Origin: Clostridia bacterium
GTDB taxonomy: Bacteria; Bacillota; Clostridia; Christensenellales; Aristaeellaceae
Direction of reading: 5' to 3'
DNA: 64,000 nt
Assembly (NCBI GenBank): GCA_017404985.1
Contig: JAFRBK010000011.1
Span: forward strand, 124,001-188,000
The notes below the pieces were generated by a model, which saw only the letters and a program-made list of their open reading frames with translations, searched no databases and was not told the DNA's origin. Shown piece after piece: positions 31,926 to 54,365 of this stretch. Positions within the stretch are counted from its first letter, which is position 1; each line of letters starts with the position of its first letter. Both the position numbers and the translations under genes were made by a program.

Positions 31926-32165
31926 ATGAAAAAGGGTAATTTAGCCAAGTATATTCTGATCGCCGTTCTGGCCGGCGCCGCTTTTATCGTTGGCTGGGCT
32001 TTCATCGACTCGGCGATTCTGAAAACGACAGAAACGTTTGCCGACGGGTTCAAGAGCGTGATCAACTGGATTCTCGCGGTTTGCTTTGGCATTTCCTGCG
32101 CTTACTCCTCCTGGAAAAAGGACAACAAGGACGGCAAAGACAGCAAGGACGAAAAGAAAGCATAA
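31926..32165 (+). CDS. Small membrane protein
   Basis: 79 residues: two membrane helices (about 8-27 and 43-61) and a Lys/Asp-rich tail (KKDNKDGKDSKDEKK). AAGGAGG is ideally placed before the ATG. No family recognised. Single gene followed by its own terminator. Confidence 0.7.
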   Translation: MKKGNLAKYILIAVLAGAAFIVGWAFIDSAILKTTETFADGFKSVINWILAVCFGISCAYSSWKKDNKDGKDSKDEKKA

Positions 32166-32251: not shown

Positions 32252-32731
32252 TTATTTCAGCGTGATCCTTCTGGAAAAAGGGATTCCCCAGAAATAATAA
32301 GTCACCGTGCCTTCCCGCACGTTATGTCCTTCCTTGGTGGTCAGGATCGTCGTAGTGAGCCCGATGCTCTTGCCGGAATCCAGGTCCACCGCCTGGTTCT
32401 GGCCCATCTGGAGCATATCTCCGTCCATCGGGGTGACGCTGACCTCGACCACTTCCGCCTTCAGGAAGGTTTTGTTGGTGATTTTCAGCGTATAGCTGTA
32501 AAACACACAGTTTTCCGGCGAGGCCTCGCCCGGCTTGCGGAACAGGGTTCCCGTCAGGGTTCCGTCCTCCGCCGCTTTGGCCAGTGCCTGAAAGGTTTCC
32601 GCCTGGGACGCCGCATCGGTGGCGATACATCCTTCGACTTCGATATCCAACGTGGCGTTGAAATACAGGTAGCCGATCCCGCCCATGGCCGCAAGGCACA
32701 GCACGATCAGGATAATGGCAAAGGCTTTCAC
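32252..32731 (-). CDS. Membrane-anchored protein, third gene of the ZorAB-like operon
   Basis: 159 residues: one N-terminal membrane helix (MKAFAIILIVLCLAAMGGIGYL) and an outward domain of beta strands. The stretch YSYTLKITNKTFLKAEVVEV resembles Ig-like or LEA14-type folds. The ATG overlaps the stop of the MotB-like gene (ATGA), so the two are coupled. No known Zorya component (ZorC, ZorD, ZorE, ZorF, ZorG) has this shape. It may be a stator accessory or wall-contact subunit. Confidence 0.65.
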   Translation of the reverse strand: MKAFAIILIVLCLAAMGGIGYLYFNATLDIEVEGCIATDAASQAETFQALAKAAEDGTLTGTLFRKPGEASPENCVFYSYTLKITNKTFLKAEVVEVSVTPMDGDMLQMGQNQAVDLDSGKSIGLTTTILTTKEGHNVREGTVTYYFWGIPFSRRITLK

Positions 32732-33729
32732 GTTGTCTCCTGATCCTCCTTCGGGCTTCCCTCCAGAATCCGATTCATTTCCTCAATCATTTCGGCATCC
32801 TTCAGGCTGAATTTGAATTCCACCCGGCGGGAAGCATCCGGATCTTCCCTGCCGTATTCGTCATACACCAGATCGGAATAGCTCTTTCCCTTAGCGGTCA
32901 GGATCTTCTGCAGCATCGCCTTCTGATCCTTTGTCAGGCTCTTCAGGTTCAGGCAGTACAGCGCCACCTGCAGGGCCCGCTCCTGGCTCAGCTTCAGGTT
33001 GTTATCATAGGAGCCGGAGGAGTCCGTATGCCCTTCAATGATGATTTCGCCCAGATAGTCGGAGTATTCCGGCCGCAGCAGCACTTCCAGATAGATCGGA
33101 ATAAACCGGTCCAGCAGCGCCTGGCCTTCCGCCTTGATCACATATTTCCCCGTTTCAAAGAACACCGCGCTGTCCAGCACGATATCGCCGGTGTTGGGGT
33201 CCACGGTAGCTTTCATGTTCGCCTTGTTCAGGCTGGAGGAAAGGTCCTGGATGATGTCGGCCTTCACGCCGATCAGCGCGTCGATCCGTTTCGCCTGGGT
33301 GGCCAGCGCCAGCTGCTGCTCTTCCACCTTCTTCGTCGCGGCATCCAGGTCCGCCTGCTTCAGCGCCAGCGCGGCCTGCAGCTCTTCCAGCTCCTTCTCC
33401 CGCGTGATCAGGATGATGTTGGCCTCGTTCAGTTCCTCTTCCTTCGCGGTCAGGGTATCCCGCAGGGTATCCAGATCCGCCTGAATCACGATCAGGGTCT
33501 TTTCCTTCTCAGCCAGCTCATCCTGGGCCAGATTCAGCGCAGCCGTCTGCAGCTCCAGCTCCTTCGTCTTGGTTTCCAGCATGCTGAAATACTGGTACAG
33601 GCTGTAACAGAGGACCAGCACGAAGATCAGCAGCAGCGCCGCCATCATGTCGGAATAGCTGATCCAGCTGGCGCCGCCTCCGGAGGAGCCCCTGGCCGCG
33701 CGCCGGTTATGGATTCGTTGCCGTGCCAT
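32728..33729 (-). CDS. ZorB-like/MotB-like protein with OmpA domain
   Basis: 333 residues. One membrane helix near the N-terminus holds the proton-carrying Asp in WISYSDMMAALLLIF (about 22-36). A long coiled coil follows (about 50-165), then an OmpA-type peptidoglycan-binding domain with IIIEGHTDSSGSYDNN and LSQERALQVALYCL. It starts 3 bp after the ZorA-like gene. In Zorya, ZorA and ZorB form an ion-driven motor anchored in the wall. No flagellar genes are in the window, and the coiled coil is longer than in MotB. Confidence 0.82.
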   Translation of the reverse strand: MARQRIHNRRAARGSSGGGASWISYSDMMAALLLIFVLVLCYSLYQYFSMLETKTKELELQTAALNLAQDELAEKEKTLIVIQADLDTLRDTLTAKEEELNEANIILITREKELEELQAALALKQADLDAATKKVEEQQLALATQAKRIDALIGVKADIIQDLSSSLNKANMKATVDPNTGDIVLDSAVFFETGKYVIKAEGQALLDRFIPIYLEVLLRPEYSDYLGEIIIEGHTDSSGSYDNNLKLSQERALQVALYCLNLKSLTKDQKAMLQKILTAKGKSYSDLVYDEYGREDPDASRRVEFKFSLKDAEMIEEMNRILEGSPKEDQETT

Positions 33730-33732
33730 GCC

Positions 33733-35010
33733 TTATCCCTCCCGGGAAAGCGCGTCCAGCGTCCTGGAGATGGCCTTCACATTCTCATTCAGGGCGGCGG
33801 TGTTCTCCCGCAGGTCCTTCAGGGAATCGCTTTCATTTTCCCCGATCCCCTGAATCTTTTCCGTCAGGTCGTCCATCAGCTTTCCAAGTTGCTTGCTCTC
33901 CTCCTGCATCCGCTCCAGCAGCTCCGTGCTCCTTTTTTCAAAGTTCACGTCCCTGTCCCGGACTTCGTTGATCGTGCCCATGTAGTTATCAAACTTATCC
34001 AGGATATGGTTCGTCATTTCCTCCAGCGCACGGGCATTCCGGATGATCTCCTGCGCGTTTTCCAGGGTCTCCCCGGTTTGCTGCGCGGCCTGCATCTGGG
34101 CTCCGGTCAGGCTTGTCATCGCCCCGGCCAGCTGGGCAAACTGCCCGCCCATGCGACGGTCCATTTCCTCCAGGAAACGGCCCACGATATGGTTAACACC
34201 GTCGATCTGGTTCCGCGTCGCCGCAACGATAAAGCGGTCCATGCTGTCCCCCACGGGCGACAGCGCCCGGTTCACGGCCCGGCCTACATTCTCCGCCATC
34301 CGCTCCGCCAGGGTTTCATTGATGCCCTGCAGCATAAAGTTCCGATCCTGGTTCTGGCAGATCAGCTGCACATCGTTATCCAACGGCCGGGACATGGCCA
34401 ACTGGGTAAAGCTGGTCACGAAGTCGTCGATGGCCCGGTAGCTGGAGCCCTGGGAAATCCGGTTCAGCATGTTGAACACGATGCTGCAGCTGATGCCGGC
34501 CACGGAGGTTCCGAAAGCAAAGCGCATCCCCTGCAGCAGGTTCGGGATGCCTTCCACCAGCTGGGTCGCATCCGCGAAATTCAGGGAGGAAAGCCCCCGG
34601 CTCAGCCCCATGAAGGTCCCCAAAATGCCCAGGGAGGTCAGCAGGTTCGGAATCAGGTCTGCCAGCGTGGCGTTCCCAGGCCCGTGGGTCACAGTATCAT
34701 CATTGATATAGTCCTCCACATTCGTCGGCAGGCCCCGACGGTCCAGCTGCTCCGCATTCTGCAGAAAGCGCAGCCAGCTGCCCTTCAGCCGCCGGCCCAT
34801 AAAGCGGGCTTCCTGCCAGACGGGTTTTTCCGTCTTCTTCCCCGCCTCATCCTGCAGTTTGGAAATTGCCCTGCGCAGGGCACCGGTGGTGCTCCACAGG
34901 GGAAAAAGGCATTTAAAAACGCCGATCAGCGTCACGATCGCGATCGCGCCGTAAACCAGATAATCCGCCAGATCCGGCAGCATTGCGGTCACCTTGGACA
35001 AATCCGGCAT
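33733..35010 (-). CDS. ZorA-like/MotA-TolQ-ExbB channel protein with coiled-coil tail
   Basis: 425 residues. Membrane helices lie at about 18-38, 116-135 and 158-180, with LADLIPNLLTSLGILGTFMG and FGTSVAGISCSIVFN as the conserved channel helices of MotA/TolQ/ExbB proteins. Residues about 200-425 are helical and largely coiled coil, ending inside the cytoplasm, as in ZorA, though the tail is shorter than in characterised ZorA. First gene of a tight three-gene operon. Known Zorya systems also carry effectors (ZorC and ZorD, or ZorE), which are not seen here; a non-defence role is possible. Confidence 0.8.
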   Translation of the reverse strand: MPDLSKVTAMLPDLADYLVYGAIAIVTLIGVFKCLFPLWSTTGALRRAISKLQDEAGKKTEKPVWQEARFMGRRLKGSWLRFLQNAEQLDRRGLPTNVEDYINDDTVTHGPGNATLADLIPNLLTSLGILGTFMGLSRGLSSLNFADATQLVEGIPNLLQGMRFAFGTSVAGISCSIVFNMLNRISQGSSYRAIDDFVTSFTQLAMSRPLDNDVQLICQNQDRNFMLQGINETLAERMAENVGRAVNRALSPVGDSMDRFIVAATRNQIDGVNHIVGRFLEEMDRRMGGQFAQLAGAMTSLTGAQMQAAQQTGETLENAQEIIRNARALEEMTNHILDKFDNYMGTINEVRDRDVNFEKRSTELLERMQEESKQLGKLMDDLTEKIQGIGENESDSLKDLRENTAALNENVKAISRTLDALSREG

Positions 35011-35167
35011 TTCACTCGCCTCCCAATATCGGATAGGCTATTATACCATCATCTTTTCGAAATGTAAATGAAACATTTCCTTAATATAACGTCCTGTGGG
35101 TGCGCCTGTCGGACCCCTCAGGCCATGTCTTTATACCGTCCCAACGAAAATGTATGCCGGAACGCAA

Positions 35168-35202
35168 AGCGCCGGCGATGCCACAAAAGCAACACCGGCG
35201 CT
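35168..35202. terminator. Hairpin after the XRE gene
   Basis: AGCGCCGG (35168-35175) pairs perfectly with CCGGCGCT (35195-35202). It lies between the end of the XRE gene (35219) and the ZorA-like gene and may separate the two transcripts. No strong T run follows. Confidence 0.5.
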
Positions 35203-35218
35203 GATGAAACAAACACCG

Positions 35219-35458
35219 TTATGGTTCCAAAGCCGTTCGGGCAAGAAATACATCCGCCGGGATTTTATAAAAGTCACACAGGACCACCATATGGTGAATC
35301 GGGAGCTCATTGACCCCGCGCTCATACCGGGCATACATGGTCTGGCTGGTTCCGATCGCCCGGGCCACCTGACCCTGGGTCAGCCCGGCTTTCAGCCGCA
35401 GCTCCCGCATCCTGGCAACATATGGCAGCCGAATCTGTCTGGGAGCCTTCTTTTCCAT
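35219..35458 (-). CDS. XRE-type helix-turn-helix regulator
   Basis: 79 residues covering one Cro/C1-type HTH: MRELRLKAGLTQGQVARAIG, then TSQTMYARYERGVNELPI and a closing helix. GAGGG lies upstream. It lies 208 bp upstream of the ZorAB-like operon on the same strand, so it is a likely regulator of it. Confidence 0.88.
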   Translation of the reverse strand: MEKKAPRQIRLPYVARMRELRLKAGLTQGQVARAIGTSQTMYARYERGVNELPIHHMVVLCDFYKIPADVFLARTALEP

Positions 35459-44034: not shown

Positions 44035-44814
44035 TCACCTTTCCCGGAAAATCCGCCCGGAGGCTTTCTGGATCAGGCGGCTGTAATCCGGCACGCAGAT
44101 TTCGCTGCCGAAGAAGCACAGGATATAGGGACGTTCGCAGTCCACCAGCGCCGCATCGTGCACCACATGGGCCAAGCCGCCGGTTTTATGGGCAATGGTG
44201 TGCTCCGGCAGGGTTTCATCCAGGAACCAGGGAATCAGGCTGGAATCCTGCTGGTTCTTGAGGATTTCCAGCATCCGGCGGCTGGCTTCGGGGCTCACCG
44301 CCCGGCCGCGGTAAATCATCTCCAGCACTTTTCCCGCCTCAAAGGCCGAGGTCGTGTTGTCTTCTCCCCGCTCAATGGCCTCCAGGTCCATCATCTTCCG
44401 CCGCACGCGGGTGGCCGTGAGCCCGAGTTCCTTCTCAAAATACGCGTTCAGCACGTCCTTCCCGGCCAGATCAATCAGGACATTGGTGGCGCTGTTGTCG
44501 CTGACGATGATCATCAGCTGGATCAGGTCCCGGACGCTGAGCTCCTGCAGGTCCTGCAGGTAGGACAGAACGCCCGCGGAGGGCGCGATCTGCTCCGGGC
44601 GCAGCGGAATCCGCTGATCCGGGCGCAGCTTCCCGTCCTCGAACAGCTGAAAGATATAAACCATGATGAAAATCTTGATCGTGCTGGCGGAAGAGTGCAC
44701 CGTGTGCTCCCCCCACCCGAAGGTTTCCCCTGTTTCCAGATCCTTGTACCATACACCGGCCTTGCCCTGCACGGCAGCCATTTCCCTGGCAAGCCATTCC
44801 CATTTTCCGTCCAT
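44035..44814 (-). CDS. Class A beta-lactamase-like serine hydrolase
   Basis: 259 residues from ATG 44814, supported by GGGAGG. Active-site motifs: Ser44 in SASTIK (S-x-x-K), SDN at 105-107 and KTG at 210-212. There is no signal peptide, so it works in the cytoplasm unless a start further left is used. It resembles the paralogue at 53580 in layout. Being next to peptidoglycan-recycling genes, it may act on muropeptides rather than give drug resistance; inference. Confidence 0.85.
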   Translation of the reverse strand: MDGKWEWLAREMAAVQGKAGVWYKDLETGETFGWGEHTVHSSASTIKIFIMVYIFQLFEDGKLRPDQRIPLRPEQIAPSAGVLSYLQDLQELSVRDLIQLMIIVSDNSATNVLIDLAGKDVLNAYFEKELGLTATRVRRKMMDLEAIERGEDNTTSAFEAGKVLEMIYRGRAVSPEASRRMLEILKNQQDSSLIPWFLDETLPEHTIAHKTGGLAHVVHDAALVDCERPYILCFFGSEICVPDYSRLIQKASGRIFRER

Positions 44815-44929
44815 CCGCGGCACCTCCCTGAAATAAATCTTCTTTTTGTATTGTTTCGGTTTCCCGGTTGCAATTCCTGCCGGATTGGCATATGATGGCA
44901 AACAGAAATGAGAAAAGAGGCGATCCCCT

Positions 44930-46039
44930 GTGAAAATTACGGAAATTGCCATCGGAACCATTGAGATTCCCCTGCTGACCCCGTTCAAAACCGCGCTTCG
45001 CACCGTGGACCGGATTCAGGACCTGCTGGTGCGGGTAACCCTGGACAACGGCGAAACCGGATTCGGCGAAGCCCCGCCCACCGCGGTGATCACCGGCGAA
45101 ACCATTCCCTCCATGCAGGCCGCGATTCGGGACTACCTGGCGCCGTCCGTGCTGGGCCTGGATCCCTCCGACCGGGAGGAATGCTTCGCCCGGCTGGAAA
45201 AAGCCATGGCCAAAAACACCTCCGCCAAGGCCGCCCTGGACATTGCCATCCACGACGCCCTTTCCCGGGCCCTGGGGCTGCCCCTGTTCCGCTACCTGGC
45301 ACAGAAGACGCCGGAGCAGGCCCGCGCCGAGCTGGAAACGGACCTGACCATCAGCGTCAACGACCCGGAAACCATGGCCGCCGACACCCGGGACGCCGTC
45401 GCCCGCGGCTTCCGCATCCTGAAGGTGAAGGTCGGCAAGGGCGGCGAAACGGACGTGGAGCGGGTCCGCCGCGTGCGGGAAGCCGCCGGCCCAGATGCCG
45501 TGCTGCGGATTGACGCCAACCAGGGCTGGACGCCGGAGGAAGCCGTGCGCACCATCGGCATGATGGAAGACGCGGGACTGAACATCGAGCTCGTGGAGCA
45601 GCCGGTTTCCTGCCATAACTTCAAGGGCATGCAGTACGTGACCGCCCATACGGCCACGCCGGTGCTGGCGGACGAGAGCGTATTCGCCCCGGAGGACGCC
45701 GCCCGCATCATTGAGGAGCACGGGGCGGACCTGATCAACATCAAGCTGATGAAAACCGGCGGGATCTATCCCGCGGAAAAAATCTGCGACATGGCGGAAG
45801 CCAACGGCATCGCCTGCATGATGGGCTGCATGCTGGAAAGCGCGGTATCCGTCAGCGGCGCGGCCCACCTGGCCGCCGCACGATCCATCGTCACCATGTG
45901 CGACCTGGACGGGCCCAGCCTCTGCGCCGAAAACCCCTATGCCGGCGGCCCCATCTACCGGGAGCAGCAGATTTTGCTGCCCGAAACCCCCGGCATCGGC
46001 ATTACCCGGGTTCCCGTTGATTTCAGGCCGGTCGGGTGA
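44930..46039 (+). CDS. ykfB: L-Ala-D/L-Glu (dipeptide) epimerase
   Basis: 369 residues, enolase superfamily, GTG start. It converts L-Ala-D-Glu from peptidoglycan to L-Ala-L-Glu. The barrel carries the KxK pair in ILKVKVGKGG, metal ligands in RIDANQGW, VEQPV and ADESVF, and the second catalytic Lys in INIKLMKTGG. The NlpC/P60 peptidase gene follows on the same strand, the same order as ykfB-ykfC in Bacillus. The symbol is by family analogy. Confidence 0.9.
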   Translation: MKITEIAIGTIEIPLLTPFKTALRTVDRIQDLLVRVTLDNGETGFGEAPPTAVITGETIPSMQAAIRDYLAPSVLGLDPSDREECFARLEKAMAKNTSAKAALDIAIHDALSRALGLPLFRYLAQKTPEQARAELETDLTISVNDPETMAADTRDAVARGFRILKVKVGKGGETDVERVRRVREAAGPDAVLRIDANQGWTPEEAVRTIGMMEDAGLNIELVEQPVSCHNFKGMQYVTAHTATPVLADESVFAPEDAARIIEEHGADLINIKLMKTGGIYPAEKICDMAEANGIACMMGCMLESAVSVSGAAHLAAARSIVTMCDLDGPSLCAENPYAGGPIYREQQILLPETPGIGITRVPVDFRPVG

Positions 46040-46131
46040 CCGCCGCATCCGCAGCCAATGCGCTTGACTGCAGGCTGCCGATGGGCTGCCAGCAGGCTTT
46101 CCAGGCTTTCCGATGAAAGGAGTTTTTTGCC

Positions 46132-47052
46132 ATGGATGAACTGAATCTGGGGCTGGTGACGGCCCCCCGGGCTTTCCTGTATGACCAGCCCGGCGCGCCT
46201 TCCGCGCCCCGGGGCATCGGCGCCCAGACGGATGAGATTTTCTGCGGCTGGGCCATTGAGGTGCTGGAAACCGGCCCGGATGCCTGGGACCGGATCCGGA
46301 CCCACAACGGATACGAAGGATGGGTGCGCAAGGAAACCTTCCGCCCCCTGGCACGGGAGGAACTGCTCGCGCGCCAGGACGGCGCCCGCTTCGCGCTGGT
46401 GACCGACGCCTGCACAGACCTGCATGCGGAGCCCTCCGTCAAGGGAGACCTGCTCTTCACGCTGCCCCGGGGGAGCATCGCGGAGCGCCTGCCCGAACCG
46501 GACAAGGACGGCTGGATCATGGTCCGGGCCGCCGACGGCACCGCAGGCTGGGCCCAGTCCGACGCCCTGCGGGACCGCAAAGACGACGACCTCTTCCTGC
46601 TGGAGGGCGGAGGGGACCGCTCCTGGTTCCTGCGCCACGGAAAGGACATCATTGCCCGGGCGGATGAGCCGGCCCTGCGCGCCGCCGTAGCCCGCACTGC
46701 CCTGAGCCGGATCGGGGCGCCCTACCGCTGGGGCGGAAAGGCCTCCGACGGCATCGACTGCTCCGGCCTGGCCTTCATGAGCTGGATGGAAAACGGCCTG
46801 CTGATCTGGCGGGACGCGTCCATCCTGCCGGACTATCCGCTGGTTGCCATTTCCCGCGAACAGCTGCAGGAGGGCGACCTGGTCTTCTTCCCCGGCCATG
46901 TGGCCGTGTATCTCGGAGACGGGCGCTATATCCACGCCACCGCCTACCGGAAAACGCCCCGGGTGACCATCAACAGCCTGAACCCCGGGGACCCGGACTA
47001 CCGCCAGGACCTGGCGGAAAGCATCGAGGCCTGCGGCAGCCTGTTCGCCTGA
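46132..47052 (+). CDS. NlpC/P60 peptidase with SH3 domains (YkfC-like)
   Basis: 306 residues. Two SH3-like domains (about 35-75 with YEGWVRKETF and 95-145) precede an NlpC/P60 domain with catalytic Cys210 in SDGIDCSGLAF, the His in FFPGHVAVYLG (about 256) and YIHATAY. This is the layout of gamma-D-Glu-diamino-acid dipeptidyl peptidase (YkfC), which frees L-Ala-D-Glu for the epimerase encoded upstream. No signal peptide, so it is cytoplasmic. AAAGGAG precedes the ATG. Confidence 0.9.
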   Translation: MDELNLGLVTAPRAFLYDQPGAPSAPRGIGAQTDEIFCGWAIEVLETGPDAWDRIRTHNGYEGWVRKETFRPLAREELLARQDGARFALVTDACTDLHAEPSVKGDLLFTLPRGSIAERLPEPDKDGWIMVRAADGTAGWAQSDALRDRKDDDLFLLEGGGDRSWFLRHGKDIIARADEPALRAAVARTALSRIGAPYRWGGKASDGIDCSGLAFMSWMENGLLIWRDASILPDYPLVAISREQLQEGDLVFFPGHVAVYLGDGRYIHATAYRKTPRVTINSLNPGDPDYRQDLAESIEACGSLFA

Positions 47053-47072
47053 ACTCCAAACTCTACACTCTC

Positions 47073-48935
47073 TTACTCTTCACTCTCCGTCACCAAGATG
47101 CCCTCCGCCCAGCCGGGCTTTCCCCCGGCCAGCAGGAAGGGCTTCATTTTTTTCTGCAGGGTCGTTTCCTCCGGCAGGTCCTCCGAGATGCCCTTATGCC
47201 CCGGATAAACCCAGTCCACCGCCCCCATGCTTTCCCGGTTCACGGACAGGAGCCGGAAACGGCGCTGGAATCCCAGAATCCGGGAGGCCGGCGGCAGGAG
47301 CTCCTTCAGCACCGGCGTCATCAGCCAGGAATCGCAATACACCGGCGCATCCGCCCATTCCGGATAAAAATCGGCCAGGAAAGCCCTGAGCCGCTTCAGG
47401 GAATCATCAATCGACTCCGGCGCAAGGGACGCGTTCGTGGGAATATGGATATAGATCCGCTTTCCCTCATCATGAGGGATGAGTTCGAACTCCAGGCTGC
47501 CCAGGCGGAACAGTTCCATCGCCAGATGGCGCTGGAACCACCATCCCGCCGTGAAACACCAGCGGCCATAAGCCTTCCGCCCGTCATACAGATAGCGGGT
47601 CGCGAAGGCATAGGTATCCCGGTAGATCTCCTCCGGGATTCCGGCCTGAAGCCATTTCGGCCACTGCAGCCGGGCAATCCGCAGCTCCTCCCACAGCAGG
47701 CGCAGGTGGCCCGGATCCTCCCCGATCCGCTGCTCCAGCTCCTTTTCCGCCTCCGCCCACACCGCGCGGGTCAGGAGCCGGCAGACGATATCCTGATCCG
47801 CGAAGGGCCGGTCCTCCCGGTCCCAGCCGGCGAACATCCGGCGGACCTCCTCCGGAATCTGAATCAGGTGGTACAGCTCCTCCGCACCCAGGGGCTCGTG
47901 AAACAGCCGCCACGCCTCCGCATGCAGCTTCCGCCGGAAGGGGAACAGGGCCGTGGATTCCCGGGTGGGATACACGCGGTTGGCCAACAGCAGGACCCAG
48001 AAGCCGCTTTCCGGCTCCACCAGCAGGCTGGTTCCCGTGAACCCGGTGTGGCCGAAGCAGTTTTCCGGCACCGCGGGGCTGAAGAAACAGTCCGGCGATC
48101 CGGCAATCTGAAATCCCAGGCCGCGGTGCTCGTCCATGCCGCGGGTATAATTCCGGGTCGCCGCCTTCAGGGTTTCCTCCCGGAGGAGCCCTTTTCCACC
48201 CCGGGACAGCATCGCGGCAAAGCGGATGCCATCGCAAAGGGGCATGAACACCCCGGCGTTGCCGGAGATTCCCCGCAGGAAGCGGGCGTTTTCATCATGG
48301 ACAACGCCGGTCCAGGCTTTGCCGGTTTCCGGATCCTTCTCCGTGGCGGCGCACACCGCGCCCGCGGGGGGACAATAGCCGGTTTCCGCCATGCCCAGCG
48401 GGCGGAACACCATCCGGTCCGCCAGCTCATTCAGCGGGGCGCCCAGCCGCTTTTCCAGCATCTTGGCTAGCAGGATGAACCCCATGCAGGAATAGATGGG
48501 CTCCACCCCCGGCTTCTGCTTCAGCGGGACTTCCAGGATACAGCGGACCGCGTCCGCCGGATCCGTCAGCATTTTATCCAGCCGGAAGGAGGGTTCGAAC
48601 CCGCCGGTATGCGTCATCAGCTGAAAAACGGTGATCCCCGCCTTATCCGCCGGCGCCTCCGGAAAAAAGTCCCCGACCGTTTCCTCCAACCGCAGCTGTC
48701 CCTCCTCCATGGCCCGCAGCGCCACCATCGTGGTGCCGAGGACCTTCGAAAGGGAGGCCATATCCCAACGGGTATGCGCATCCACCGGCGTTCCGCCCGG
48801 TTCCGGCGCCTCGCCCGCGAAAGCCGACGCCAGCACATGGTTCCGCACCCCGACGGCGGCCGCCGCCGCGGGAAAACAGCCCTCCCGCACTCCCTGGTCC
48901 AGACGTTCCTTCAGCCAGTTACTGTTCAGCATCAT
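47073..48935 (-). CDS. Serine hydrolase (beta-lactamase/AmpH type) fused to an acyltransferase-like domain
   Basis: 620 residues from ATG 48935 (GGGAGGA upstream). Residues about 1-335 are a class C type serine hydrolase: RWDMASLSKVLGTT gives the S-x-x-K, PIYSCMGFILLAK the tyrosine motif (Y-S-C in place of Y-S-N), and CFGHTGFTGTSLLV the HTG motif. Residues about 345-620 form a helical domain and then a GNAT-like acyltransferase domain of the DUF5596 kind (RIYIHIPTNASLAPESIDDS). No signal peptide. It is transcribed against the recycling genes on both sides. Fused substrate unknown. Confidence 0.75.
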   Translation of the reverse strand: MMLNSNWLKERLDQGVREGCFPAAAAAVGVRNHVLASAFAGEAPEPGGTPVDAHTRWDMASLSKVLGTTMVALRAMEEGQLRLEETVGDFFPEAPADKAGITVFQLMTHTGGFEPSFRLDKMLTDPADAVRCILEVPLKQKPGVEPIYSCMGFILLAKMLEKRLGAPLNELADRMVFRPLGMAETGYCPPAGAVCAATEKDPETGKAWTGVVHDENARFLRGISGNAGVFMPLCDGIRFAAMLSRGGKGLLREETLKAATRNYTRGMDEHRGLGFQIAGSPDCFFSPAVPENCFGHTGFTGTSLLVEPESGFWVLLLANRVYPTRESTALFPFRRKLHAEAWRLFHEPLGAEELYHLIQIPEEVRRMFAGWDREDRPFADQDIVCRLLTRAVWAEAEKELEQRIGEDPGHLRLLWEELRIARLQWPKWLQAGIPEEIYRDTYAFATRYLYDGRKAYGRWCFTAGWWFQRHLAMELFRLGSLEFELIPHDEGKRIYIHIPTNASLAPESIDDSLKRLRAFLADFYPEWADAPVYCDSWLMTPVLKELLPPASRILGFQRRFRLLSVNRESMGAVDWVYPGHKGISEDLPEETTLQKKMKPFLLAGGKPGWAEGILVTESEE

Positions 48936-49041
48936 GGTTTCCTCCCCTGTTGCAAGCCGTAATATCAACTGTTATAATATGGTATCATGAATCGGAGGCT
49001 CCCGCAATGAGGCCGCCGGAAAAACAGAAAAAGGTGAAAAC

Positions 49042-49950
49042 ATGGAAGAGCTGAACAAGCTGGATACGGAGCAGCGCAATCCTGCCAGCGCGAATATTGA
49101 CCTGCTTTCCTCGGAGGAAATGGTGGCCCTGATCAACCGGGAGGACCACCGCTGCGCGGAAGCCGTTGCGCAGGTGCTGCCGGAAATCGCCCGCAGCGTG
49201 GACCTGATTGAGGGGCAGCTTCACCGGGGCGGCCGGCTGTTCTATGCCGGGGCGGGAACCTCGGGCCGGCTGGGCGTGCTGGATGCCGCCGAATGCCCGC
49301 CGACCTACGGCGTCGCGCCGGAACTGGTCGTCGGGCTGATTGCGGGCGGGCCTTCCGCCTTCCTGAAGGCGGTGGAGGGCGCGGAAGACAGCCCGGAGCT
49401 GGGCCGGAAGGACCTGCAGGAGCACGGCTTCTGTGAAAAAGATGCGTTGGTGGGAATCGCCGCCAGCGGCCGCACACCGTATGTGATCGGCGCCATGGAC
49501 TATGCGCGGGAAGTGGGCGCCCCGGTGATGGCCCTGGTCTGCTGCCGGAACAGCGAAATGTCCCGCCACGCCGACGTCACCATGGCGCCGGCGCCGGGCC
49601 CGGAGGTCATTACCGGTTCCTCCCGAATGAAGAGCGGGACCTGCCAGAAGCTGGTGCTGAACATGCTCTCCACCTGCGTGATGGTGAAGCTGGGCAAGGT
49701 TTACGGCAACCTGATGGTGGACGTGCAGGCCACCAACCACAAGCTGGTGAACCGGGCCATCCGCATTGTATGCACCGCCACCGGCGCGAATGCGGAGGAG
49801 GCGGAGGCCGCCCTGAAGCAATGCGGCTTCAGCTGCAAAACCGCCATCGTGATGCTGCTGCTGAAGGCGGACGCCGAGGAGGCGGAGCGCCTGCTGGCCG
49901 AAGCGGACGGCCGCATCGCCCTGGCGCTCAAAAACCAACAGGAGGGCTGA
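49042..49950 (+). CDS. murQ: N-acetylmuramic acid 6-phosphate etherase
   Basis: 302 residues. It cleaves the lactyl ether of MurNAc-6-P to give GlcNAc-6-P and D-lactate. The SIS domain has FYAGAGTSGRLGVLDAAECP (about 68-87) with the catalytic Glu, GIAASGRTPYVIGAM and TGSSRMKSGTCQKLVLNML; the C-terminal helical domain is present. First gene of a plus-strand run; the kinase gene follows after 1 bp. Confidence 0.95.
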   Translation: MEELNKLDTEQRNPASANIDLLSSEEMVALINREDHRCAEAVAQVLPEIARSVDLIEGQLHRGGRLFYAGAGTSGRLGVLDAAECPPTYGVAPELVVGLIAGGPSAFLKAVEGAEDSPELGRKDLQEHGFCEKDALVGIAASGRTPYVIGAMDYAREVGAPVMALVCCRNSEMSRHADVTMAPAPGPEVITGSSRMKSGTCQKLVLNMLSTCVMVKLGKVYGNLMVDVQATNHKLVNRAIRIVCTATGANAEEAEAALKQCGFSCKTAIVMLLLKADAEEAERLLAEADGRIALALKNQQEG

Positions 49951-49951
49951 T

Positions 49952-50896
49952 ATGCTGTATTGCGGATGGGACGGCGGAGGAACCAAAACGGAGGTCTGCC
50001 TGGCGGACGAGGCCGGCCGGCGCCTGGCATCGGCAGTGTTCGGTCCGCTAAACCCCAATGGGACGGCCCGGGACCGGGTGGTGGATACCATCCGGCAGGG
50101 AATCCGGTACATGGCGGAAGCGGCCGGCAGCCTTTCCGCCGTCGGCGGGCTCGTGGTCGGCATGGCCGGCATCAGCAACCGGAGCGCCGCCACGCTGGTA
50201 GAGAACGCCCTGAAGGAAGCCATGGATGAAACCGGCGGAGCCGTGCCCTTCCGCCTGGCCGGAGATCAGGAGATTGCGCTGGCCGGCGCGGTGGAAGGCG
50301 CCGGCGCCCTGCTGATTGCCGGCACCGGATCGGTCTGCACCGGCCGGGATGCCGAAGGCCGTCCCTTCCGGGTCGGCGGATACGGATACCTGATCGATGA
50401 CGCGGGCAGCGGCTGGGACATCGGCCGGGGCATTCTGGCCGCCGTGGTGCGCGCGGAGGATGGGCGGGGCCCCAACACGGCGCTGACCCAGCTCGTGTTC
50501 GACAAGCTGGGCTGCTCCTCCGTCGGGGAGATGATTACCTGGCTCTATGCCCCGGAAACCGGCAAAAAGGACGTGGCCGCGCTGGCCGCGCTGCTGCCCA
50601 CCGCCCTGGAGCAGCAGGACGCCGCGGCGGAAACCATCGCCCGGCAGGCCGCGGACAGCCTGGCGGAGCTGGCGGAAACCGGCTGGCGGAAAAGCAGCCT
50701 GCAGGCCGGCGAGCTGGCCGTCACCGGCAGCATCCTGCTGCATGTTCCCGCCATCCGGAACGCCCTGGAGCAGCGCCTGCACCGGACCTGCCCCCTGCTC
50801 CGCGTGACGGAACCCCACGGAACCCCGGCGGAAGGCGCCGCCAAAATGGCCCGCCAGATTTTTCAGAAAAAGGGGCAGCAACCTGCCCCACATTGA
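49952..50896 (+). CDS. BadF/BcrA-type amino-sugar kinase (MurNAc/GlcNAc kinase)
   Basis: 314 residues, ASKHA fold. DGGGTKTEVCLADEAG near the N-terminus is the phosphate-1 loop, GTGSVCTG the phosphate-2 loop and YLIDDAGSGWDIG the family signature of GlcNAc/MurNAc kinases such as MurK. The tight link to murQ (1-bp gap) and namZ indicates that it makes MurNAc-6-P inside the cell, the substrate of MurQ. GGAGGG before the ATG. Confidence 0.88.
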   Translation: MLYCGWDGGGTKTEVCLADEAGRRLASAVFGPLNPNGTARDRVVDTIRQGIRYMAEAAGSLSAVGGLVVGMAGISNRSAATLVENALKEAMDETGGAVPFRLAGDQEIALAGAVEGAGALLIAGTGSVCTGRDAEGRPFRVGGYGYLIDDAGSGWDIGRGILAAVVRAEDGRGPNTALTQLVFDKLGCSSVGEMITWLYAPETGKKDVAALAALLPTALEQQDAAAETIARQAADSLAELAETGWRKSSLQAGELAVTGSILLHVPAIRNALEQRLHRTCPLLRVTEPHGTPAEGAAKMARQIFQKKGQQPAPH

Positions 50897-50909
50897 AAAG
50901 GAGAAACCT

Positions 50910-52052
50910 ATGCCTGTTCTTTCCGGAATCGACCATGCCGAAAACATTCACGGCCTGCTTTCCTCCGGGCGGCTGGGCCTGATGACCAACCAGACCGGCA
51001 TCAACCGGCAGTTTCAGTCCTCCATCGACGTGCTGCAAAAGCAATACCGGCTGGAAGCGCTCTTCGCCGTGGAACACGGCATCCGCGGCAGCATTCAGGC
51101 GGGCGAAAACGTCACCTCGGACACGGATCCCGCCAGCGGCCTGCCGGTTTATTCGGTATACGGCGGCACGCACCGGCTGACGGAGGAGATGCTGGATGCC
51201 TTCGACATTTTCTGTTTTGACATGCAGGATGTGGGGGCCCGGTTCTATACCTATCTGTATGCCCTGTCCCTGGCCATGGCAGAATGCGCGAAGGCCGGGA
51301 AGCCCGTAGTGGTCTTTGACCGGATCAATCCCCTGGGCGGGGAGCTGATCCAGGGCACGGTGCTGGATCCCCGCTTTTCCTCCTATGTGGGCCTGTATCC
51401 CCTGCCCACCCGATACGGCCTGACCATCGGGGAATATGCCCGGTGGGTCAAGGCCCATCTCCGCCTGGACAGCCTGGACCTGACGGTGGTTCCCCTGGCC
51501 GGCTGGCGCCGCGGCATGCTGGTTCGGGAGCTGGACCTGCCCTGGGTGGCGCCCTCCCCGAACTGCCCCAGCTTCCATGCCGCCCGGGCCTACGTCGGCA
51601 CCTGCATTTTTGAAGGCACCAATGTTTCGGAGGGGCGCGGCACCACCCTGCCCTTTGAATATATCGGCGCACCCTGGATCGACGCGGACCGCCTGGCCGC
51701 CCTCCTGGCGGAAAAGCCCCTGGCCGGCGTATTCTTCCGCCCGTGCTGGTTCACCCCGACCTTCTCCAAATATGCCGGGGAAGCCTGTGCCGGCGTGCAG
51801 CTGCATATCACCGAACCCCTGACCGCGGATCCGGTGCTGGCAGCCCTGACGCTGCTGGACGCCATCCGGGAGCTGTATCCGGACCGGCTGCAGTGGATTT
51901 CCCAGCCTGACGACAGCTTCACCATCGACAAGCTGCTCGGCACAGACACCTACCGCCTGGGGCAGCATGGCGCCGCCTCGCTGACAGCAGCCCATGAAGA
52001 AGCCCGCCTCCGGTTCCGGAAAGAACGGGAGCCGTATCTTCTGTATGAATAA
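50910..52052 (+). CDS. namZ: Exo-beta-N-acetylmuramidase, DUF1343 family (NamZ)
   Basis: 380 residues. DUF1343 is the NamZ family, which releases MurNAc from the non-reducing end of peptidoglycan sugars. Conserved strings seen: GLMTNQTGIN, FAVEHGIRGSIQAGE, FDMQDVGARFYTYL, FDRINPLGG and PSPNCPSFHAARAY. No signal peptide here, whereas Bacillus NamZ is secreted, so this enzyme would work on imported disaccharides. It lies between the kinase and nagZ genes. Confidence 0.9.
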   Translation: MPVLSGIDHAENIHGLLSSGRLGLMTNQTGINRQFQSSIDVLQKQYRLEALFAVEHGIRGSIQAGENVTSDTDPASGLPVYSVYGGTHRLTEEMLDAFDIFCFDMQDVGARFYTYLYALSLAMAECAKAGKPVVVFDRINPLGGELIQGTVLDPRFSSYVGLYPLPTRYGLTIGEYARWVKAHLRLDSLDLTVVPLAGWRRGMLVRELDLPWVAPSPNCPSFHAARAYVGTCIFEGTNVSEGRGTTLPFEYIGAPWIDADRLAALLAEKPLAGVFFRPCWFTPTFSKYAGEACAGVQLHITEPLTADPVLAALTLLDAIRELYPDRLQWISQPDDSFTIDKLLGTDTYRLGQHGAASLTAAHEEARLRFRKEREPYLLYE

Positions 52053-52098
52053 CACAACCATTTCTCAAAGCAGGCAACAATAAACGGAGGAAACAACC

Positions 52099-53583
52099 AT
52101 GGAACTCACCACAATGATCGGCCAGCGGATCTGCACCGGTTTCACGGGCACGGAGGTCACGGACGAAATCCGGGACCTGGTTAAAAAACACAAAGTCGGC
52201 AACATCCTCCTTTTCAGCCGGAATGTAGTCAATTTTGACCAGCTCCGTACCCTCTGCAAGGACCTTTCAGACCTGATCCTGTCGGAAACAGGCCTCCCGC
52301 CCTTTATCATGATCGATGAGGAATGCGGCGCCGTTTCCCGCATCGGCCATCTGGCCGGCGATACGCCCTGCGCCGGCGCCCTGGGGAGCACCGGAGACCC
52401 GGAAAACGCCCGGACAGTCGGCAGAATCATCGGCAAACGGCTCCGCGCCGCTGGAATCAACCTGAACCTTGCCCCCGTGCTGGACTGCCTGAGCCAACCC
52501 CGCTCCACCGTGATGGGCAACCGCTGCTTCTCCGAAAGCCCGGATGAGGTCGCCCGCTTTGGCAAAGCTTATATCGAAGGCATCCGGGAATCCGGCATCC
52601 TGTCCTGCGGCAAGCATTTCCCCGGCCACGGGGATACCGCGGTGGATTCCCACTTCGCCCTGCCCGTGGTGGACAAAAGCCTGCCGGCCCTGGAACAGAC
52701 AGAGCTGGTTTCTTTCCGGGAAGCCATCCGTACCGGGCTGGAATCTATCATGACAGCCCATATCGTCTTCCCGGCGCTGGACCCGGACCTGCCGGCAACC
52801 ATCTCCCCGCGAATCCAGCAGGGGCTTCTGCGGCAACGGCTGGGATTTGAAGGCCTGGTCATTTCCGACGGCATGGAGATGCAGGCCATGCAAAACCTCT
52901 TTCCGCTTCCGGAAGGCGTGTTCCGTGCCCTGCAGGCCGGAATTGATATTGTGCTTGTCTGCCATGAGCCGAATCAGGCCGCTGCCGCCTGTGAGCGGGT
53001 ACTGGCCGCCGTGGAGCAGGGAAAAATGGCTCCGGAGGATCTGGAAGAACACTTCAGCCGGATTCAACGGTTCAAGCAGGCCCTGCCCTCCCCCGGCAGC
53101 AAGGAAGATTTTTCGGATCCACTGGATCGGAAGCTGTCCTCGGAAATCATGGATCGGGCCGTCCGGGTCCTTCATGCCCCGAATGGCAGCCCCCTGCCGG
53201 AAGTGAATCAGGACACGCTGTTCTGGGCCCGTTCATCACGGCGCGCTTCCCCCGCCATGGACAGCAGCACGCTGAACGCCGCAGCCTACGCCGCGGCTCG
53301 GATCGGGTCTACGCTGGTTTTCACCGGCACGGAGCCCCTGCCGGAAAGCAGGCCGGCAACAGCGGTGTTCTTCCTGGAGAAAGGAGACCACCTGCAGGAT
53401 GATCTGGCGGAAGCATCCAGGCTGGCCAGTCTTGGGACGCAAACCATCCTCGTTGGCCTGGATACTGCCTTCGTTCTGGAAAGCGCGCCGCCAAACACCT
53501 GGCACATCGCAGCCTGGCAGTATCAGACCCTTGCTCTTGACGCCGTCCTGCGCATGCTGAAACAGAGAGGAGCCGAACAATGA
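52099..53583 (+). CDS. nagZ: Beta-N-acetylglucosaminidase, GH3 (NagZ)
   Basis: 494 residues. It removes GlcNAc from muropeptides. The GH3 signature KHFPGHGDTAVDSH (about 174-187) contains the Asp-His catalytic dyad special to NagZ enzymes, and VISDGMEM (about 254) contains the nucleophile Asp. The C-terminal about 130 residues extend past the barrel. No signal peptide. Good GGAGG. The next gene starts within its stop codon. Confidence 0.92.
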   Translation: MELTTMIGQRICTGFTGTEVTDEIRDLVKKHKVGNILLFSRNVVNFDQLRTLCKDLSDLILSETGLPPFIMIDEECGAVSRIGHLAGDTPCAGALGSTGDPENARTVGRIIGKRLRAAGINLNLAPVLDCLSQPRSTVMGNRCFSESPDEVARFGKAYIEGIRESGILSCGKHFPGHGDTAVDSHFALPVVDKSLPALEQTELVSFREAIRTGLESIMTAHIVFPALDPDLPATISPRIQQGLLRQRLGFEGLVISDGMEMQAMQNLFPLPEGVFRALQAGIDIVLVCHEPNQAAAACERVLAAVEQGKMAPEDLEEHFSRIQRFKQALPSPGSKEDFSDPLDRKLSSEIMDRAVRVLHAPNGSPLPEVNQDTLFWARSSRRASPAMDSSTLNAAAYAAARIGSTLVFTGTEPLPESRPATAVFFLEKGDHLQDDLAEASRLASLGTQTILVGLDTAFVLESAPPNTWHIAAWQYQTLALDAVLRMLKQRGAEQ

Positions 53584-54365
53584 ATTCAATGGACTGGATC
53601 CGCCCGCGGCTGGAAACCCTGCCGGGGAACATCAGCGCTGTATGCAAAAACCTTGCCACGGGGGAAACTTTTGCCTACCGGCCCCACGCACTCCATGACG
53701 CGGCCAGCATCATCAAGCTGTATGTGATGGCCGCCATGTTTCAGGGCTTTCACGACGGGGATTTCCGGCCGTCCGACCGGCTTCCCGTCCGCCGGGAGGA
53801 CTGCATGCCCTCCTGCGGTGTTCTGACCTATCTGGACGACGGCAAGGAGGTTTCCCTGCGGGACCTGACTGAGCTGATGATCATCGTCAGCGACAACACC
53901 GCCTGCAACATCCTGCTGGACTTCTATACCCTGCCCCGGATCCAATCCTTCATCCGGGAAAAGCTGGAACTGGAGGAAACCTTCTGCCGCCGGAAACTCT
54001 TTGACGAGGAGGCCTCAGCCCGGGGGGTCCGGAACGAAACCAGCGCCGGGGATGCGGCCCGGCTGCTGGAGGAGATCCGGCTTGGCCGCCTTATCAGCCC
54101 GGAAGCTTCCGCCGCCATGCTGACCATGCTGGGGCACCAGCGCCTGAACGGCAAGCTGCCCTTCCGCCTGCATACACTGGAGGATGCACCGCACATTGCC
54201 CACAAAACCGGAGAGGACGACGGCACCACCCACGACTGCGGCATCATCGAAGCCCGGGAGCCGCTGCTGGCCTGCCTGATGGGCAACGAAACGGACGTGC
54301 CCGCCTTTGAGCGCGCCATGGGCGATATCGCCTGGGACCTGGTGGCGGGGCTGGGCAAAGCATGA
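53580..54365 (+). CDS. Class A beta-lactamase-like serine hydrolase, paralogue 2
   Basis: 261 residues. Ser43 in AASIIK, SDN at 104-106 and HKTG around 209 match the class A layout; the order and spacing resemble those in the 44035 gene. It overlaps nagZ (ATGA), so it belongs to the recycling operon. No signal peptide. A cytoplasmic peptidase or amidase acting on stem peptides is more likely than a drug-resistance enzyme; inference. A terminator follows. Confidence 0.85.
   Translation: MNSMDWIRPRLETLPGNISAVCKNLATGETFAYRPHALHDAASIIKLYVMAAMFQGFHDGDFRPSDRLPVRREDCMPSCGVLTYLDDGKEVSLRDLTELMIIVSDNTACNILLDFYTLPRIQSFIREKLELEETFCRRKLFDEEASARGVRNETSAGDAARLLEEIRLGRLISPEASAAMLTMLGHQRLNGKLPFRLHTLEDAPHIAHKTGEDDGTTHDCGIIEAREPLLACLMGNETDVPAFERAMGDIAWDLVAGLGKA

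What the first reader, a model, noticed from the sequence alone, without database searches (positions are those of the whole stretch)
32252..35458. Compact ZorAB-like operon without known Zorya effectors
XRE regulator, then MotA/TolQ-like channel, MotB/OmpA-like anchor and a single-helix third protein, tightly packed (3-bp gap and ATGA overlap). ZorA and ZorB are the motor of Zorya antiphage systems, but ZorC/D/E-type effectors are absent. The third gene could be a new effector or a sensor, or the whole unit may be a cell-wall motor of another kind.
Basis: partly seen in the sequence, partly recalled or inferred. Interest (0 to 1): 0.72.

Follow-up and report, generated by a model that had tools for sequence, protein, structure and literature searches.

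The report
ZorAB-like cell-wall motor, not defence
Flagella-free gut bacteria carry, as standard genes, an ion-driven membrane motor related to an anti-virus system; here it is paired with a small surface-side protein that in some relatives is fused to a cell-wall-cutting enzyme, so it looks like a cell-wall machine.

Summary
The genes are real: zorA-like (33733-35010 -), zorB-like (32728-33729 -) and a one-helix 159-aa protein (32252-32731 -). The overlap is GTGA, not ATGA. The XRE gene has no match in 31 other genus loci. Best profile relatives are ZorA/ZorB, motor and peptidoglycan motifs intact; NCBIfam Zorya cut-offs are not met.

Defence is unlikely. All three genes are in 32 of 37 genus genomes (10 of 10 good ones), in housekeeping surroundings, with dN/dS 0.01-0.09 and no close plasmid or viral copy. 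Gene 3's family is in 157 of 180 genomes of the bacterial family, but not always beside the motor: of 125 places examined 74 follow zorB, 41 do not, 10 are unclear.

Some genomes have another one-helix third gene, or none.

Best explanation: a peptidoglycan-anchored ion motor that works, through gene 3, on wall peptide trimming. Sequence, linkage and fusion are shown; assembly, ion flow and output are inferred. No structure could be predicted.

The parts
33733..35010 (-). zorA-like gene, 425 aa: MotA/TolQ/ExbB-type channel subunit with a C-terminal helical tail
   Evidence: Thr/Ser motifs GILGTFMGL and AFGTSVAGIS line up with ZorA1/ZorA2
32728..33729 (-). zorB-like gene, 333 aa: one TM helix with the ion-binding Asp (D27), long linker, OmpA-like peptidoglycan-binding domain
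   Evidence: motif distance 206 residues against 114 and 116 in two Zorya ZorBs
32252..32731 (-). gene 3, 159 aa: N-terminal TM segment (residues 1-26) plus a domain of about 130 residues predicted outside; no known family (FixG_C Ig-like hint below cut-off)
   Evidence: follows zorB in 71 of 75 named loci whose contig reaches that far; family members fused to an M15 peptidase in three genomes
33730..33732 (-). 3-bp gap between zorA and zorB
32728..32731 (-). 4-bp GTGA overlap of zorB stop and gene 3 start
35219..35458 (-). XRE/HTH_3 gene upstream; judged NOT part of the unit
   Evidence: no match in 31 other genus stretches

Best explanation
It is a housekeeping, peptidoglycan-anchored, ion-driven membrane motor of the ZorAB branch that acts on the cell wall through gene 3. 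ZorA-like subunits form the channel ring around ZorB helices, and ion flow past ZorB Asp27 drives it (inferred from homology to solved ZorAB and MotAB). ZorB holds the wall through its OmpA-like domain on a linker about 90 residues longer than in Zorya (motifs and length measured; binding inferred). Gene 3 stands beside it, anchored by one helix and facing outward, and couples the motor's force or state to D-Ala-D-Ala (M15) peptidase activity: in some genera the peptidase is the next gene or is fused to gene 3 in one polypeptide, in the window it would be supplied from elsewhere. The motor might place, pull on or gate the peptidase, or gene 3 might report wall state to the motor; direction is open. 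Shown by computation: homology, motifs, distribution, inheritance, purifying selection, linkage and the three fusions. Inferred: assembly, ion flow, topology in the window protein, and the wall output.
For: Closest relatives by profile: PADLOC ZorA1/ZorB1, solved ZorA 8vvn (3.2e-17) and ZorB 8qyd (2.1e-19), ahead of MotB and OmpA chains. Asp, Thr/Ser and peptidoglycan motifs kept. All three genes in 32 of 37 genus genomes and in 10 of the 10 that are at least 90% complete. Of 57 zorB-adjacent gene 3 places newly read, 9 are followed on the same strand by an M15 gene and 3 are one protein of 390-399 aa: helix, gene 3 domain (1-159), M15 domain (from about 176-185), with the H...D and E..H motifs present. 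In the named loci an M15 gene follows gene 3 in 10 of 11 loci of one ZorA group, 9 within 100 bp (partly the same species). Distances track Asd (Spearman 0.58-0.65, 0 of 500 permutations as high, 32 loci). dN/dS 0.012-0.091. FliG in 0 of 37 genus genomes; every MotA_ExbB match there is a Zor-like or EPS-locus gene.
Against: Gene 3 is not tied to ZorAB everywhere: 41 of 125 examined places have no zorB beside them (one of these has a zorA), 20 of the 41 adjoin polA instead. ZorAB occurs with another third gene or none. The window genome and most linked loci show no M15 gene beside gene 3 (45 of the 57 newly read). No structure: 20 attempts met a full queue. zorB and gene 3 distances correlate only weakly (0.34). 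In L127 two unrelated genes separate gene 3 from zorB. Simple hydropathy found one helix in ZorA where homologues have three, and none in 10 of 71 gene 3 calls, some of them called too short. The motor's solved relatives are all defence proteins.
Confidence: 0.55

Rival explanations
1. A Zorya-type anti-phage system of a new subtype: ZorAB senses phage-made envelope damage and gene 3, or an effector encoded elsewhere, stops the phage.
For: ZorA/ZorB are the nearest known families; compact operon as in Zorya II.
Against: Core in the genus; strong purifying selection; housekeeping neighbours with scattered generic PADLOC hits; no close relative on plasmids, phages or viral contigs; gene 3 relatives are coupled or fused to a wall peptidase; PMC8565338 (passages) says ZorAB alone is not sufficient for defence.
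Confidence: 0.1
2. A fixed envelope-stress sensor: ZorAB reports wall state through the ZorA tail to an unlinked cytoplasmic partner; gene 3 is its outer sensing lobe and little work is done on the wall.
For: In Zorya the ZorA tail is required (PMC11890865, section 6 read in part); the third gene varies between genomes; the tail is kept and longer in other genera.
Against: No linked cytoplasmic partner is conserved; the tail is the least conserved part of ZorA; the linked and fused enzyme acts outside.
Confidence: 0.22
3. Gene 3 is an independent wall-peptidase partner that merely shares an operon with ZorAB in some genera; the two have no joint mechanism.
For: 41 of 125 gene 3 places lie away from zorB, 5 of them next to an M15 gene; ZorAB occurs without gene 3.
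Against: Gene 3 follows zorB in 71 of 75 named loci and in 20 of 20 strong-match family places read, with overlaps and short gaps; the unlinked copies are more divergent and may be paralogues.
Confidence: 0.1
4. A motor for surface motility, polymer export or flagella.
For: Two same-genus genomes carry a MotA-like/MotB-like pair in an exopolysaccharide cluster.
Against: That pair is 27-28% identical over the channel and its genomes have no gene 3 match; FliG in 0 of 37 genus genomes with a control that rings.
Confidence: 0.03

Closest known systems
Zorya ZorA/ZorB (types I and II; PDB 8vvn, 8vvi, 8qyd)
   Same: Channel plus peptidoglycan-anchored subunit, same Asp and Thr/Ser motifs, A-then-B order, ZorA tail; best profile matches.
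   Different: No ZorC/D/E/F/G found; an outward-facing third gene instead; ZorB motif distance 206 against 114 and 116; core in the genus; NCBIfam cut-offs not met. ZorA length is no difference: 425 aa here, 550-708 in three plasmid references, 378 for the type II chain 8vvi.
Flagellar MotAB
   Same: Stator architecture by homology; OmpA-like peptidoglycan-binding domain in the B subunit.
   Different: No FliG in the genus; apart in the tree; longer linker (206 against 162).
TolQ-TolR-TolA and ExbB-ExbD-TonB
   Same: Works like: channel pair plus a third single-helix protein that carries force across the envelope.
   Different: Third protein unrelated by Pfam; B subunit carries an OmpA domain; apart in the tree. 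The window has an LPXTG protein, so an outer-membrane output is unlikely (inference).
M15 D-Ala-D-Ala peptidases (VanX/DdpX-like, PF01427)
   Same: Next gene or fused domain of gene 3 relatives, catalytic motifs present.
   Different: Known enzymes of this family are not reported in what I read as coupled to a stator-type motor; substrate untested.

Membership tests
Zorya anti-phage system | ZorA and ZorB homologues side by side | tested here: met
   PADLOC ZorA1 4.4e-25, ZorB1 7.3e-69; PDB best hits. The ZorB1 model also rings on flagellar MotB
Zorya anti-phage system | Curated ZorA/ZorB cut-offs of NCBIfam | tested here: not met
   ZorA best 86.4 bits against 100; ZorB1 82.4 against 400
Zorya anti-phage system | Linked ZorC+ZorD, ZorE, or ZorF+ZorG | tested here: not met
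   None among 20 window proteins nor among 119 neighbours at 16 loci. EH_Signature in 0 of 180 family genomes, but its control genomes were silent too
Zorya anti-phage system | Patchy, mobile or defence-island distribution | tested here: not met
   32 of 37 genus genomes; housekeeping neighbours; no close plasmid, phage or viral copy
Zorya anti-phage system | Protects against phage | not testable with these tools
   Needs phage challenge
Ion-driven 5:2 motors (MotAB/ExbBD/TolQR/ZorAB) | MotA/ExbB channel domain plus B subunit with TM Asp | tested here: met
Ion-driven 5:2 motors (MotAB/ExbBD/TolQR/ZorAB) | 5:2 assembly and ion flow | not testable with these tools
   Needs cryo-EM and flux assays
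Flagellar stator (MotAB) | FliG in the same genome | tested here: not met
   0 of 37 genus genomes, control positive. In 180 family genomes 8 partial matches, 3 over cut-off, in frames of 493-582 aa, not followed
Tol/Ton-type force transducers | Third protein of TolA/TonB family | tested here: not met
   No such match in gene 3 or in the listed families of 51 members

The most novel reading that the evidence does not exclude
ZorAB is not at root a defence motor: in this Clostridia family it is a cell-wall motor of cells without flagella that drives or gates D-Ala-D-Ala trimming of peptidoglycan through an anchored partner, which evolution has variously placed next to the peptidase, fused to it, or exchanged for another protein. 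Zorya would be an exaptation of such wall motors for phage sensing.
Probability: 0.35. Interest if true: 0.87.

Novelty: new variant of a known kind. Interest (0 to 1): 0.68.

Why it matters
ZorAB has been studied as the sensor-motor of an anti-phage system. A vertically inherited relative that is core in a genus, mostly the only MotA/ExbB-type gene detected there, and joined to a protein whose relatives are fused to a peptidoglycan peptidase, offers a non-defence setting in which to ask what such motors do and where Zorya came from. An ion motor acting on wall peptide trimming in a bacterium with an LPXTG-type wall would be unexpected, and the fusion makes it directly testable. It also warns that ZorAB pairs without effectors should not be counted as defence systems.

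Tried and rejected
Structure of gene 3: structure prediction on A5 was tried 20 times; each time the queue was full, so there is no fold and no fold search. Kinship of the kinds of third protein: A5 against A6 (probability 0.2%) and the L083 lipoprotein (0.5%) gave nothing. PDB search with gene 3: one chance-level hit (E 0.7). Pfam on 51 gene 3 members: FixG_C in 2, eight other families in 1 each.

Re-reading showed that weak matches in sister genomes of gene-3-negative ones needed checking; 108 places were read and 41 proved unlinked to zorB. The same reading gave the M15 neighbours and fusions. I raised the best explanation from 0.50 to 0.55 and the novel case from 0.30 to 0.35, lowered defence from 0.15 to 0.10, and added a rival for these facts.

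ZorA trees: the long alignment separates the ZorA group, Zorya included, from MotA (99/97) but has very long branches; the 95-column core tree leaves Zorya unresolved and neither recovers nor rejects one clade for the family rows (p-AU 0.53). So I do not claim where Zorya attaches.

Literature: in six searches no title or abstract start listed describes an effector-less core ZorAB in Clostridia; listings were partial (for example 25 of 168), and three papers were opened, in passages or one section.
Full report
WHAT IS THERE. An XRE/HTH_3 gene lies 208 bp upstream. ZorA just reaches the Pfam MotA_ExbB cut-off and scores 4.4e-25 against PADLOC ZorA1; ZorB matches OmpA (1.5e-11) and ZorB1 (7.3e-69); gene 3 has only a sub-threshold FixG_C hint (0.0033). 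No NCBIfam Zorya cut-off is met. Best solved relatives are ZorA 8vvn and ZorB 8qyd.

MOTOR PARTS. In 16 genus sequences ZorB Asp27 (SYSDMM) and the GHTD...LSQ.RA...SRRVEF motif residues are invariant or nearly so. They line up with ZorB1, ZorB2 and E. coli MotB, and ZorA Thr/Ser motifs with ZorA1/ZorA2. Their roles are taken from PMC11890865 (section 6, part 1) and general knowledge. The distance from TM motif to GHTD is 206 residues in the window, median 208.5 (187-392) in the 70 family rows where both motifs were found (of 83 family rows), against 114 and 116 in two Zorya ZorBs, 162 in E. coli MotB and 197 in a ZorB-like protein of another family (G045). A coiled coil is likely by eye, not computed.

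DISTRIBUTION. Of 61 relatives, 37 belong to the genus (G000 included); zorA, zorB and gene 3 are in 32 of these and in 10 of the 10 with completeness of at least 90%. With a 51-sequence gene 3 profile: order, 15 of 200 genomes, 13 of them family members and two outside with weak partial matches; family, 157 of 180, 90 of 95 good ones, 46 of 50 genera; class, 2 of 291, the window genome and one weak partial match. In the order sample the PADLOC ZorB1 model also hits those 13 family genomes. Of 23 gene-3-negative family genomes 20 were tested for ZorA: 15 have it (weakest 2.0e-24).

LINKAGE, CHECKED. Gene 3 presence is not trio presence. By coordinates gene 3 follows zorB in 17 family-sample genomes. 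I then read 108 more gene 3 places: the listed ones weaker than about 1e-45, bar one and those already known, plus 20 stronger ones. In 57 gene 3 is next to zorB, same strand, downstream (20 of the 20 stronger ones); in 41 no zorB lies in the stretch (mostly 3.5 kb each side; L251 has a zorA there); 10 are unclear (5 near contig ends, 5 not called). Total 74 linked, 41 not, 10 unclear of 125; 32 of the 157 were not read. The unlinked copies score weaker (about 1e-41 to 1e-13) and 20 of 41 adjoin polA. Whether their genomes hold ZorAB is untested, for want of searches; in two of their genera (g103, g117) gene-3-negative genomes have ZorAB with another third gene.

NAMED LOCI. A scan with ZorA gave 80 loci (best of 87), titled Clostridia, Clostridiales or, once, Christensenellaceae, many from ruminant gut. 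Gene 3 lies downstream of zorB in 71; five of the other nine end in zorA or zorB, leaving 71 of 75. In 70 it is the next gene; in L127 two reverse-strand genes intervene. Absent in L192, L194, L195, L197.

THE PEPTIDASE. In the named loci with ZorA 39-43% identical to the window's, 10 of 11 with gene 3 continue into a gene for a PF01427 D-Ala-D-Ala peptidase with a signal-like start by eye, gaps -17 to 463 bp, 9 within 100 bp (Pfam on one representative). In the 57 newly read linked places, 9 have an M15 gene directly downstream on the same strand, and 3 (L242, L250, L264; one genus, g108, which also has four unfused pairs) encode one protein of 390-399 aa with the gene 3 profile at residues 1-159 and M15 from about 176-185. 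Five unlinked gene 3 copies adjoin a reverse-strand M15 gene (genera g105, g140). Some genomes of the two sets are the same species, so the counts must not be added. The linked cases span genera g30, g106, g108 and g115 (handles). Fusion is direct evidence that a gene 3 domain can work in one molecule with this peptidase, and that the domain faces outward if the peptidase acts on the wall (inference).

SURROUNDINGS. In the genus loci Sir2 is within the stretch in 22 of 32, isocitrate dehydrogenase in 22, a cytidylate-kinase-like gene in 20, a DUF308 gene in 16, the HTH only in the window's own (Pfam). In the named loci Asd is in 36 of 80, DapA and DapB in 15 each, MurI in 10 (one representative each by Pfam). 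These wall-precursor genes may be inherited synteny only.

DEFENCE TESTS. Of 119 neighbours from 16 loci, 12 PADLOC families were hit at 1e-10 or better, by one to three proteins each, by name mostly generic. In the window 18 other proteins gave only HTH, ABC-ATPase and marginal hits. Plasmids: 38 records, none above 60% identity or covering 80%; three fetched are annotated Zorya loci or carry an EH-signature gene and a helicase beside zorA. Viral contigs: 130 candidates, none confirmed. Phages: three records with zorB similarity at 37% or less. EH_Signature: 0 of 180, but controls silent.

INHERITANCE AND SELECTION. Over the 32 loci with all four genes, distances of zorA, zorB and gene 3 correlate with Asd at 0.65, 0.59 and 0.58 (0 of 500 permutations as high each); zorA-gene 3 0.63, zorA-zorB 0.62, but zorB-gene 3 only 0.34. 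dN/dS in three close pairs per gene (two share a genome): zorA 0.012-0.037, zorB 0.018-0.032, gene 3 0.041-0.091.

OTHER MOTORS. FliG_M: 0 of 37 genus genomes. MotA_ExbB matches in 34 of 37, all at the trio, the second copy (G000, G033) or the EPS-linked pair (G021, G028); so in 30 genomes the trio's zorA is the only such gene found.

OTHER THIRD GENES. In 11 loci of gene-3-negative genomes, five (genera g142, g111, g103, g117) have after zorB a different family of 163-189 aa as called (A6), with one TM segment in the three scanned and a SnoaL_4 hint below cut-off in two of four. In four g110 loci no third gene follows; L223 and L230 end in zorB. In another family (L083) a lipoprotein, by eye, follows. 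Profiles show no kinship.

MECHANISM AND SCORE. I infer a wall-anchored ion motor whose force or state is coupled, through an anchored partner, to peptide trimming. PMC11890865 calls Zorya's distribution typical of anti-phage systems and PMC8565338 (passages) says ZorAB is not sufficient for defence; PMC12505986 (passages) left ZorAB out of its stator phylogeny. New variant of a known kind; interest 0.68, because the fusion makes an unexpected function directly testable while structure and phenotype are still missing.

Noticed in passing
window 44035-54365: Muropeptide-recycling-like cluster: two Beta-lactamase2 proteins, an enolase-like epimerase, SH3-NlpC/P60, SIS-domain (MurQ-like, recalled), BadF/G kinase-like, NamZ, GH3 (NagZ-like, recalled), about 10 kb from the motor genes.
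   Followed up: partly
L231-L238, L284-L318 (41 loci): Gene 3 homologues away from zorAB, 20 of them next to polA; in several a short lytic-transglycosylase-like gene (by eye and motif) is near.
   Followed up: partly
L081:8673-12259 (G000 contig C30) and L082:2351-5841 (G033): Second, patchy ZorAB copy (about 40% identical ZorA) whose ZorB of 667-699 aa has two OmpA matches; in 2 of 37 genus genomes. In G000 a Card1-like nuclease gene lies upstream (L081:5789-6952).
   Followed up: partly
L096:9683-12849 and L097 (G028, G021): MotA-like gene followed by a 540-aa protein with SpaA/SdrD-like domains and an N-terminal helix, inside an exopolysaccharide-type cluster.
   Followed up: no
L083:9773-12175 (G045) and L208:9877-11723 (G170): Shorter ZorAB-like pairs in two other families of the order; L083 lies near ribosomal-protein genes and has a lipoprotein as third gene.
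   Followed up: partly
PADLOC model PDLC00609 (ZorB1): Scores this ZorB at 7e-69 and also rings on flagellar MotB, so single-model hits over-call Zorya.
   Followed up: partly
L127:9363-13378: Two reverse-strand carbohydrate-enzyme-like genes (by eye) between zorB and an intact gene 3.
   Followed up: no
window 31926-32165 (+): Small 79-aa membrane protein convergent to gene 3; no family above cut-off.
   Followed up: no
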